From positions 1,967,001 through 2,031,000 of the forward strand of contig NZ_CP059066.1 of assembly GCF_017301615.1 (NCBI RefSeq): a stretch of 64,000 bases of DNA, written 5' to 3'. Numbering within the stretch: position 1 is the stretch's first letter; each line of letters begins with the position of its first letter. Positions 40,386 through 53,121 of the stretch are shown here, in pieces. Below the pieces are notes generated by a model. That model was not told the origin of the DNA. It did no database searches and saw nothing but the letters and a program-made list of their open reading frames with translations. A program made the translations under genes and the position numbers. The stretch is from Koleobacter methoxysyntrophicus. GTDB lineage: Bacteria > Bacillota > Thermosediminibacteria > Koleobacterales > Koleobacteraceae.

Positions 40386-40472
40386 TGGTGCCCGAGGTGA
40401 GACTCGAACTCACACACCTTTACAGGTATCGGTTTTTGAGACCGACTCGTCTGCCAGTTCCGACACTCGGGC
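40386..40472 (-). tRNA. tRNA-Leu (anticodon CAA)
   Basis: On the minus strand a full cloverleaf of 87 bases including an encoded CCA: acceptor GCCCGAG/CTCGGGC, anticodon stem TCGGT/ACCGA with loop CTCAAAA giving CAA, a long class II variable arm, and GTTCGAGTC in the T arm. It lies between the small-protein gene and the XRE regulator and has its own terminator. Confidence 0.95.
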
Positions 40473-40540
40473 ACGGTTTCCAGTAAATCCTATACCGAGC
40501 TTAGTATTTAGACTGCATTTATAATAATAGCACAAGAAAA

Positions 40541-40930
40541 TTATTTTTTCAAGCTGTTTTCCTTGGATTCAAATTTTAATTTATCAAATTCATCAAGGAT
40601 AGTTCTGATAATATTTAAAATCATTTCCATTTCCTTGTTGCTCCTATTTTTAAACAGGGAAACCAGCTCTTGTTTTAGCAGTTCCCTATCGGATTTAACC
40701 CTGTATTCCTCTTCGGGTTCTAATAAAAAATCAAGACTGGTGTTCAGGGCTTTCGTAATCTTCTTTAAAGTCTTTAATGATGGAACCTTATCTCCCCTTT
40801 CAACTTGCCCGATATAACTGTAGTGGAGGTTTGCCTTTTCCCCTAATTGTTCCTGCGTAAGACCGGATTTAATCCGTAATTGTCGTATTCTGTTTCCTAT
40901 ATAGGTTAACTCATCTTTATTATAATCCAT
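40541..40930 (-). CDS. XRE-family helix-turn-helix regulator
   Basis: 129 residues. Residues 10-66 are a lambda-repressor-like HTH (IRQLRIKSGLTQEQLGEKAN, SYIGQVERGDKVPSLKTLKK), then an acidic linker and a helical C terminus that may dimerise. Similar small XRE proteins in Firmicutes (SinR-like) control sporulation or biofilm genes, but no target is evident. The start ATG 40930 has GGAGTTGATGCT upstream. The divergent neighbour across ~300 bp is an L,D-transpeptidase. Confidence 0.88.
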   Translation of the reverse strand: MDYNKDELTYIGNRIRQLRIKSGLTQEQLGEKANLHYSYIGQVERGDKVPSLKTLKKITKALNTSLDFLLEPEEEYRVKSDRELLKQELVSLFKNRSNKEMEMILNIIRTILDEFDKLKFESKENSLKK

Positions 40931-52408: not shown

Positions 52409-52437
52409 TTGACATATAATCTACCCGATTGTATAAT
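52409..52437 (+). promoter_or_regulatory. Consensus sigma-A promoter for tRNA-Leu
   Basis: TTGACA (52409), 17-base spacer, TATAAT (52432). Transcription should start near 52444, so the tRNA half-gene at 52460 and the intact tRNA are in one transcript. Confidence 0.85.
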
Positions 52438-52459
52438 ATATATTGTGAAATTAAAGAAT

Positions 52460-52497
52460 GCCGGGATAGTGAAACTGGCAGACACGCTATCTTGAAG
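52460..52497 (+). pseudogene. tRNA-Leu 5' half (truncated tRNA)
   Basis: GCCGGGATAGTGAAACTGGC and the following bases match the 5' acceptor strand, D arm and start of the anticodon arm of a tRNA-Leu (ACACGCTATCTTGA), then similarity stops. No 3' half or matching acceptor strand (CCCGGC) follows. It lies only 9 bp before an intact tRNA-Leu and after a perfect promoter. Confidence 0.75.
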
Positions 52498-52506
52498 TTA
52501 AATAAT

Positions 52507-52591
52507 GCGGGAGTGCTGGAACAGGCAGACAGGCACGTTTGAGGGGCGTGTGTCAGATGACGTGTGGGTTCAAGTCCCACCTCCCGCACCA
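52507..52591 (+). tRNA. tRNA-Leu (anticodon GAG)
   Basis: 85 bases with encoded CCA: acceptor GCGGGAG/CTCCCGC, anticodon stem CACGT/GCGTG with loop TTGAGGG giving GAG, a class II variable arm, and GTTCAAGTC in the T arm. Sits downstream of a consensus promoter and a tRNA half-gene and is followed by a strong terminator. Confidence 0.94.
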
Positions 52592-52605: not shown

Positions 52606-52656
52606 AACCCCCACTTTCCTTCCTAAATAGAGTAGGGTAGGGTAAGGGGGTTTTTT
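52606..52656 (+). terminator. Terminator after tRNA-Leu(GAG)
   Basis: AACCCCC and GGGGGTT arms separated by a partly pairing C/T- and G/A-rich interior, followed by six T. It lies 15 bp after the tRNA. Confidence 0.75.
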
Positions 52657-52806: not shown

Positions 52807-52824
52807 AAATCGCGATAAAAAAGA

Positions 52825-52850
52825 GGTCTGATTAATAATATAATCAGACC
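52825..52850. repeat. Perfect 10-bp inverted repeat
   Basis: GGTCTGATTA-ATAATA-TAATCAGACC. It lies in the non-coding stretch between the tRNA and the YjcZ-like genes, about 20 bp after the terminator-like hairpin. On neither side is there a T run. Possibly an operator or RNA stem. Confidence 0.8.
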
Positions 52851-52980
52851 CGGAGGGTGTTTTGCATTTATGGATACAATTATACAATAATACTAGAAAA
52901 AAATCAAGTTTTTTATTGCAATCTAAAAAATAGAATGATTCCTTGAGTCCTCTATGCAAACATTCCGGATAAATATGAGA

Positions 52981-53006
52981 AAGGTAACGGAAGATTCCGT
53001 TACCTT
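52981..53006 (-). terminator. 12-bp perfect hairpin after YjcZ-like gene
   Basis: AAGGTAACGGAA-GA-TTCCGTTACCTT, starting 10 bp after the minus-strand stop at 53017. The U tract that follows on the minus strand is weak (TCTCATATTT), so it may act as an mRNA-stabilising end rather than a strong terminator. Confidence 0.6.
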
Positions 53007-53016
53007 ATATTTTGAA

Positions 53017-53121
53017 TTACGCTTCTGTTCCGTAGCATCCATAGCCACCTATTACCAGCAGAATCAAAATCAAGAAGATCAAGAACACAATCCCATAGTA
53101 ACCTCCATAAAATCCTGACAT
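53017..53121 (-). CDS. YjcZ-like small sporulation membrane protein (34 aa)
   Basis: Encodes MSGFYGGYYG, then the helix IVFLIFLILILLVIGGYG and a short end CYGTEA: the typical layout of YjcZ-family sporulation proteins (glycine/tyrosine start, one membrane helix). GGAGGGAG lies eight bases before the ATG at 53121. A paralogue is encoded 145 bp upstream on the same strand. Members are made in the mother cell in Bacillus; the exact role is unknown. Its size puts it below common gene-calling limits. Confidence 0.85.
   Translation of the reverse strand: MSGFYGGYYGIVFLIFLILILLVIGGYGCYGTEA

What the first reader, a model, noticed from the sequence alone, without database searches (positions are those of the whole stretch)
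52460..52591. tRNA-Leu half-gene between a perfect promoter and intact tRNA-Leu(GAG)
A 38-base 5' half of a different tRNA-Leu (acceptor GCCGGGA) stands 9 bp before the complete tRNA and downstream of a TTGACA-N17-TATAAT promoter. It may be a scar from recombination between tandem tRNA-Leu genes or from element excision. Because it is transcribed, it could also fold with the leader and affect processing of the intact tRNA.
Basis: seen in the sequence. Interest (0 to 1): 0.5.

Follow-up and report, generated by a model that had tools for sequence, protein, structure and literature searches.

The report
Scar of a swapped leucine tRNA gene
The half-gene looks like what is left of the bacterium's former leucine tRNA gene, cut at its anticodon and replaced on the spot by a different leucine tRNA gene that reads the same codons, and a matching swap is seen in a distantly related genus.

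Summary
A 36-nt 5' half (52460-52495) lies between a 12/12 promoter and an intact tRNA-Leu(GAG). It matches the intact tRNA-Leu(GAG) of a same-order relative at 34 of 36 bases, from base 1 to the second anticodon base; no matching 3' half was found in the genome. The intact neighbour has the same anticodon but belongs to another tRNA-Leu(GAG) lineage ("CTG type").

No intact tandem pair turned up (0 of 79 CTG-type loci). A second case did, in a distant genus: seven of nine genomes keep an intact native gene; in two, the native 5' half, cut after the first anticodon base, is followed by 87 bp and a whole CTG-type tRNA-Leu(GAG), which in one of them runs straight into the native 3' flank. Those two are not sisters and their silent sites are nearly saturated (41/123), yet half, insert and tRNA are 94-100% identical.

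Best explanation: in-place replacement of tRNA-Leu(GAG) by recombination that breaks the old gene at its anticodon. The swap is well supported in that genus and inferred for the window. No enzyme or mobile element was identified. Folding interference is not supported.

The parts
52409..52437 (+). Promoter TTGACA-N17-TATAAT, inferred to be that of the displaced native tRNA-Leu(GAG) and now the only 12/12 promoter upstream of the intact gene
   Evidence: 12/12; a 9/12 match also lies at 52479-52506. The same TTGACA-N17-TATAAT is present in 16 of 16 class genomes checked. The stretch TATAATATATATTG is shared with G003 and G004, whose native gene is intact.
52438..52459 (+). Leader of the displaced gene (22 nt, same length as in G003)
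   Evidence: Sequences printed
52460..52495 (+). 5' half (bases 1-36) of the displaced native tRNA-Leu(GAG), ending after the second anticodon base; differs from G003 at bases 9 and 13 (A for G)
   Evidence: 34/36 to G003, 31/36 to class family f4; score 163 against shuffle maximum 83
52496..52506 (+). 11-nt junction between the half and the intact tRNA (AGTTAAATAAT); loosely resembles the sequence before the same tRNA in G001
   Evidence: G001; alignment (weak)
52507..52591 (+). Intact CTG-type tRNA-Leu(GAG) with encoded CCA, the replacement gene; no other GAG gene was seen in the genome
   Evidence: not all 51 tRNAs of the genome were typed
52606..52656 (+). Terminator-like inverted repeat AACCCCC...GGGGGTT followed by T run, after the tRNA
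   Evidence: Read by eye; not reported by the scan, whose loop limit is 8

Best explanation
The half is the remnant of the genome's own ancestral tRNA-Leu(GAG) gene. A recombination event broke that gene within its anticodon and put a complete tRNA-Leu(GAG) of another lineage (CTG type) behind the break. The old promoter, leader and first 36 bases stayed, the old 3' half was lost, and the newcomer is now read from the old promoter. The half is predicted to be transcribed as part of the 5' leader (about 62 nt if transcription starts near 52445), folds into its own hairpin and is presumably removed by RNase P with the leader. Shown: identity of the half, no matching 3' half found, no second GAG gene seen, and the same architecture with empty and occupied sites in another genus. 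Inferred: that the window arose by that same route, that the break at the anticodon is mechanistic (a site-specific recombinase, a homing-type nuclease, or microhomology), transcription, and processing.
For: Half is 34/36 identical to G003's intact tRNA-Leu(GAG), the best match among 171 distinct tRNA genes in hand. No match to the native 3' half in the genome beyond weak tRNA-like ones. Silent sites between the window genome and its family relative G001 are nearly saturated (33% identical against 27% expected, 533 sites), so a 94% conserved half was an intact gene until late, or is still constrained. Second case: in genus g95, 7 of 9 genomes have the intact native gene, and 2 of 9 (G142, G412) have the native promoter, native 5' half (35/35 between them) broken after the first anticodon base, 87 bp, and a whole CTG-type tRNA-Leu(GAG); in G142 this runs directly into the native 3' flank. 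G142's nearest relative by upstream DNA is G377 (95%), with the intact gene; G142 and G412 are 77% there and share 41/123 fourfold sites (0.29 expected), yet half, insert and tRNA are 35/35, 82/87 and 84/86 identical. 21 of 22 genomes tested have exactly one match to the intact-GAG pattern. CTG and non-CTG forms sit behind a homologous upstream gene in families f16 and f39 and behind the same promoter and upstream gene in f5.
Against: No recombinase or mobile element was found at either site, and the 87-bp insert has no relative in phages or plasmids beyond the tRNA itself, nor its promoter stretch in viral contigs. The foreign side of the junction differs (11 bp in the window, 87 bp in G142), which a fixed attachment site would not give without later deletion. 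The window's own 3' boundary cannot be compared with an empty site, and G412's 3' flank is only partly like that of its congeners. A CTG-type tRNA also follows an SBP gene in G018, G059 and G048, so the CTG gene may be the older occupant of this locus and the promoter-half the newcomer. In f16 the two forms differ by so little that in-situ change is possible. Conservation of half and insert in g95 could also mean constraint rather than transfer.
Confidence: 0.6

Rival explanations
1. Tandem decay: two tRNA-Leu(GAG) genes of different lineage stood in tandem behind one promoter, and a later deletion removed the 3' half of the first and the spacer.
For: Different types occur in the same SBP-to-iscS neighbourhood in the class. 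The bases just before the intact tRNA resemble G001's leader (weak). Tandem tRNA-Leu(CAG)-tRNA-Leu(GAG) pairs exist elsewhere (6 of 79 loci within 400 nt).
Against: 0 of 79 distinct CTG-type loci with upstream sequence has an intact GAG gene upstream. In G142 the CTG tRNA ends exactly where the native 3' flank begins, which a tandem insertion does not predict. Two independent breaks lie within one base of each other, at the anticodon.
Confidence: 0.22
2. Remnant of a classical integrative element: an element integrated in the tRNA gene with a tyrosine recombinase, carried a tRNA with it, and was later deleted.
For: tRNA genes are common targets and fragments are a known by-product (PMC9897764, section 12). 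A tRNA-Leu gene serves as attL of Oenococcus phage phiS13 next to its integrase.
Against: No recombinase family among ten window proteins or eight proteins around the G142 site. No element between half and tRNA in 3 of 3 genomes. The displaced 3' half was not found in G000 and not seen in G142.
Confidence: 0.12
3. Functional leader: the transcribed half is kept because its hairpin affects transcription or processing of the downstream tRNA.
For: The half is far better conserved than silent sites in both lineages. It folds better than most shuffles (z -2.3; 6 of 200 shuffles as good).
Against: G001 has the same kind of tRNA and promoter without the half. The intact relative's first 38 bases fold just as well (-11.7 against -11.1). 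Leader and tRNA fold independently. The window's half differs from its parent type at bases 9 and 13.
Confidence: 0.06

Closest known systems
Partial tRNA genes left by integrative elements (PMC9897764: outline, abstract, sections 12 and 15 read; Islander, PMC4383910: start of abstract seen in a search listing)
   Same: A displaced tRNA fragment and a complete gene mark a recombination event at a tRNA gene
   Different: Here the fragment is the 5' half, the complete gene is of another sequence lineage, no element or integrase lies between them, and the native 3' half was not found
tRNA gene set change by tandem duplication (PMC7661048, passages seen)
   Same: Turnover of tRNA genes for one amino acid
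   Different: That is gain of copies by large duplications in the laboratory; this is one-for-one replacement by a divergent gene with the same anticodon
Homing endonucleases and group I introns of tRNA anticodon loops (recalled, not tested)
   Same: The break is at the anticodon
   Different: No intron was seen and no nuclease gene was found among the proteins scanned

Membership tests
Integrative-element tRNA scar | Integrase gene or its remnant next to the fragment | tested here: not met
   Ten window proteins and eight G142 proteins, none a recombinase family; other ORFs were not scanned
Integrative-element tRNA scar | The displaced part of the native gene is found at the other end of an element | tested here: not met
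   Native 3' half not found in the window genome; no such match in G142
Tandem tRNA-Leu pair | Intact tandem pair of the two GAG forms in a relative | tested here: not met
   0 of 79 distinct CTG-type loci with upstream sequence (76 of them with 400 nt or more)
In-place tRNA-Leu(GAG) replacement | Empty site with intact native gene in close relatives and occupied site with native half plus foreign gene | tested here: inconclusive
   Met in genus g95: 7 of 9 intact, 2 of 9 replaced. For the window, only more distant relatives (G003, other family, other locus) show the intact native type.
In-place tRNA-Leu(GAG) replacement | Only one GAG gene left | tested here: met

The most novel reading that the evidence does not exclude
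A mobile replacement cassette exists that is aimed at the anticodon of tRNA-Leu(GAG): it breaks the resident gene there and supplies a complete substitute tRNA-Leu(GAG) of a divergent lineage, spreading between distant bacteria, perhaps because the substitute is resistant to something that attacks the resident gene or tRNA.
Probability: 0.2. Interest if true: 0.8.

Novelty: new variant of a known kind. Interest (0 to 1): 0.5.

Why it matters
A tRNA that appears to be the only one with its anticodon in the cell seems to have been swapped in place for a divergent version at least twice, each time with the old gene cut at the anticodon. In genus g95, native and replaced forms coexist among related species and the replaced segment is far more alike than its flanks, so the origin of replacement tRNAs becomes testable. 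It also warns annotators that half tRNA genes need not mark genomic islands.

Tried and rejected
Chance resemblance: rejected (score 163 against shuffle maximum 83). Half of another leucine isoacceptor: rejected; best CAG match 28/36, TAG 25/36, GAG of G003 34/36. Half duplicated elsewhere in the genome: not found (best other E 0.34). Remnants of either tRNA in the flanks of G001, G002, G003, G004, G012 and G018: none convincing; the lowest shuffle counts were 4 of 200 (G002) and 9 of 200 (G003), both for the native type after the SBP gene; the G003 stretch contains what I recognise by eye as RNase P RNA. Source of the 87-bp insert: weak matches in G108, G409 and G417 lie inside unrelated long reading frames; its 21-codon open tail gave no protein match. 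Viral contigs with a tRNA-Leu-like 5' half and a changed anticodon loop: 32 hits; ARAGORN calls a tRNA at 18 of them, one being a tRNA-Leu(GAG); the other 14, read by eye, show no tRNA-Leu(GAG) half broken at the anticodon. Half plus CTG tRNA in viral contigs: 0 by exact pattern. Phylum survey for anticodon-broken halves: 2 of 398 genomes, G142 and G339; G339 reads TTGAGA and I judge it an intact variant, not examined further. That pattern cannot see the window's own half. Literature: seven full-text searches; nothing in the listings is about replacement of a tRNA gene broken at the anticodon; this is no proof of absence.

Full report
What is there. The promoter at 52409-52437 is a 12/12 match. 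The intact tRNA-Leu(GAG) is at 52507-52591 with its CCA encoded and is the lowest-scoring of the 51 tRNA matches in the genome (44.2 bits). Between them stands GCCGGGATAGTGAAACTGGCAGACACGCTATCTTGA (52460-52495), followed by 11 nt.

Whose half it is. The tRNA-Leu(GAG) of G003, a genome of the same order but another family, matches at 34 of 36 bases, from base 1 to the second anticodon base. Family f4 of the same class matches at 31 of 36. Of 171 distinct tRNA genes in the loci in hand at that point, these come first; the best tRNA-Leu(CAG) has 28 and the window's own intact gene 24. The G003 gene has the same promoter type, the same 22-nt leader length and the same TATAATATATATTG. So the window keeps the promoter, leader and 5' half of a native-type tRNA-Leu(GAG). 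A search of the genome with the whole G003 gene finds no 3' half beyond weak tRNA-like matches; a badly decayed one would be missed.

The intact neighbour is of another lineage. Its D-stem is CTG:CAG ("CTG type", my label); the native kind is GTG:CAC, and GCG:CGC in most of family f5. In the class, the CTG form is in G000, G001 and G018 (of 4 genomes hit among 26, G002's match has two mismatches and is not CTG type). In an even sample of the phylum 48 of 398 genomes match the pattern with up to one mismatch. At least one of those, L085, is not a tRNA, and L086 reads AAG. In family relative G001 the same flanking gene, promoter and CTG tRNA occur without the half.

The locus. In the window the order is polA, coaE, lytic transglycosylase, quinolinate-type phosphoribosyltransferase, solute-binding protein (SBP), tRNA, response regulator, cysteine desulfurase, thiI (Pfam for most; polA named from recall, coaE by its homologue in G142). 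The phosphoribosyltransferase and SBP genes stand upstream of the tRNA in G001 and in 8 of the 9 f5 genomes fetched; the ninth contig starts too late to tell. The desulfurase gene lies downstream in G001 and in the 4 f5 genomes whose fetched stretch reaches or shows it. SBP-like genes also precede the CTG tRNA in G059 and G048. G002 and G003 keep the SBP gene but ARAGORN finds no tRNA after it, and they carry a GTG:CAC-type tRNA-Leu(GAG) elsewhere. In 4 of 4 f4 genomes fetched, the native type lies about 2 to 4 kb from the desulfurase gene.

How late the break is. Fourfold-degenerate sites between G000 and G001 are 33% identical with 27% expected by chance (533 sites). A dead half should have drifted just as far. 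At 34/36 it was intact until well after that split, or is still constrained. Its two differences from G003, A for G at bases 9 and 13, fall at positions that are G in nearly all the tRNA-Leu genes printed.

A search for an intact tandem pair. I read the upstream sequence of CTG-type loci. Recounted without duplicates there are 80 distinct loci, 79 with upstream sequence (78 with 150 nt or more, 76 with 400 nt); 79 of the 80 read GAG and one AAG. None has an intact tRNA-Leu(GAG) within 400 nt upstream; 6 have an intact tRNA-Leu(CAG) and one a tRNA-Arg. Two carry a half directly upstream: the window (alignment score 163) and G142 (155).

The second case. In G142, same phylum but another class, the order is phosphoribosyltransferase gene, native promoter, native 5' half ending TTTG (first anticodon base), 87 bp with a promoter-like TTGACA-N17-TACAAT, and a complete CTG-type tRNA-Leu(GAG). 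Of the nine genomes of this genus, G142 and G412 have this; the other seven have an intact GCG-type gene with a like promoter. In G142 the CTG tRNA's CCA is followed directly by the native 3' flank; G412's flank is only partly like that of its congeners. So in G142 the piece from the anticodon to the 3' end of the native gene was exchanged for 87 bp plus a whole foreign tRNA. By upstream DNA G142 is closest to G377 (95%), which has the native gene, while G412 is 77% (8 genomes compared; G247's contig is too short). Fourfold sites of the upstream gene in G142 and G412 are 41/123 identical with 0.29 expected. Yet the half is 35/35, the insert 82/87 and the CTG tRNA 84/86. Either the segment was shared horizontally, or the whole of it is under strong constraint. 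I favour the first. The G142 CTG tRNA is closer to that of G018, another class (81/86), than to the native gene of its own genus (68/85).

How common. Among 49 genomes chosen as carriers of CTG-type genes (the AAG one included, the false hit left out), only G142 and G412 show an exact GAG-type 5' half; the window's half escapes that pattern. A survey for halves broken at the anticodon found 2 of 398 genomes, G142 and the doubtful G339. In 21 of 22 genomes tested the intact-GAG pattern matches exactly once; G131 has none by that pattern. Within families f16 and f39 CTG and GCG forms lie behind a homologous upstream gene, and G018 shares its promoter with its GCG-type congeners G012 and G009. 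In f16 the rest of the tRNA is so alike that in-situ change is possible.

Mechanism. The left break is after anticodon base 2 in the window and after base 1 in G142/G412. If breaks fell evenly along a tRNA gene of about 85 bases, two within one base of each other would occur by chance in about 3 to 4% of cases (my estimate). This points to a cut at the anticodon, as by a site-specific recombinase or a homing-type nuclease, with repair from DNA carrying a CTG-type gene; microhomology recombination is the plainer alternative. No enzyme gene was found: ten window proteins and eight proteins around the G142 site match no recombinase or nuclease family, and the insert has no match outside the tRNA in phages or plasmids and no exact promoter match in viral contigs. 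In the class of G142 (37 genomes) only G142 and G412 carry it, besides three weak matches inside unrelated genes. An integrase next to a tRNA-Leu attL is annotated in Oenococcus phage phiS13, so tRNA-Leu genes are used as phage sites elsewhere.

What the half does now. It lies inside the predicted leader; no transcript data were available. Half plus leader and the tRNA fold independently (-47.1 against -12.0 and -34.6 kcal/mol), and G003's intact gene has the same hairpin potential in its first 38 bases. I expect RNase P to discard it (recalled biology, not tested).

Literature. PMC9897764 (outline, abstract, sections 12 and 15 read) documents partial tRNA genes from element integration and CRISPR uptake. 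PMC7661048 (passages seen) shows tRNA gene gain by tandem duplication. Nothing that I read in either describes a one-for-one replacement broken at the anticodon.

Name. 

Noticed in passing
L086 (G241:C7:61604-61626): A CTG-type tRNA-Leu with anticodon AAG, unusual for a bacterial leucine tRNA (recalled).
   Followed up: no
L056/L269 (G018) against L062/L063/L268 (G012, G009): Within one genus the tRNA-Leu(GAG) body differs (CTG against GCG type) behind the same promoter, an apparent further in-place swap without a scar.
   Followed up: partly
window 52976-53075: Weak Termite-leu match (22.2 bits, gathering 51) at a perfect 12-bp inverted repeat 52981-53006.
   Followed up: no
window 53017-53121, - strand: A 34-codon hydrophobic ORF rich in Gly and Tyr, like small YjcZ-type spore proteins (recalled); no Pfam match.
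   Followed up: partly
window 52824-52851 and L010 about 1670-1689: An inverted repeat and its downstream sequence (GAGGGTGTTTTG...) alike in the window and G001 although the rest of the spacer differs (by eye).
   Followed up: no
window 40386-40930: tRNA-Leu(CAA) with a Cro/C1-type HTH gene (40541-40930) immediately upstream on the same strand.
   Followed up: no
L278-L303 (viral contigs): Several phage tRNAs with a tRNA-Leu-like 5' half but anticodons GTC (Asp), GTT (Asn) or GAA (Phe) as called by ARAGORN; possibly miscalled or reassigned tRNAs.
   Followed up: no
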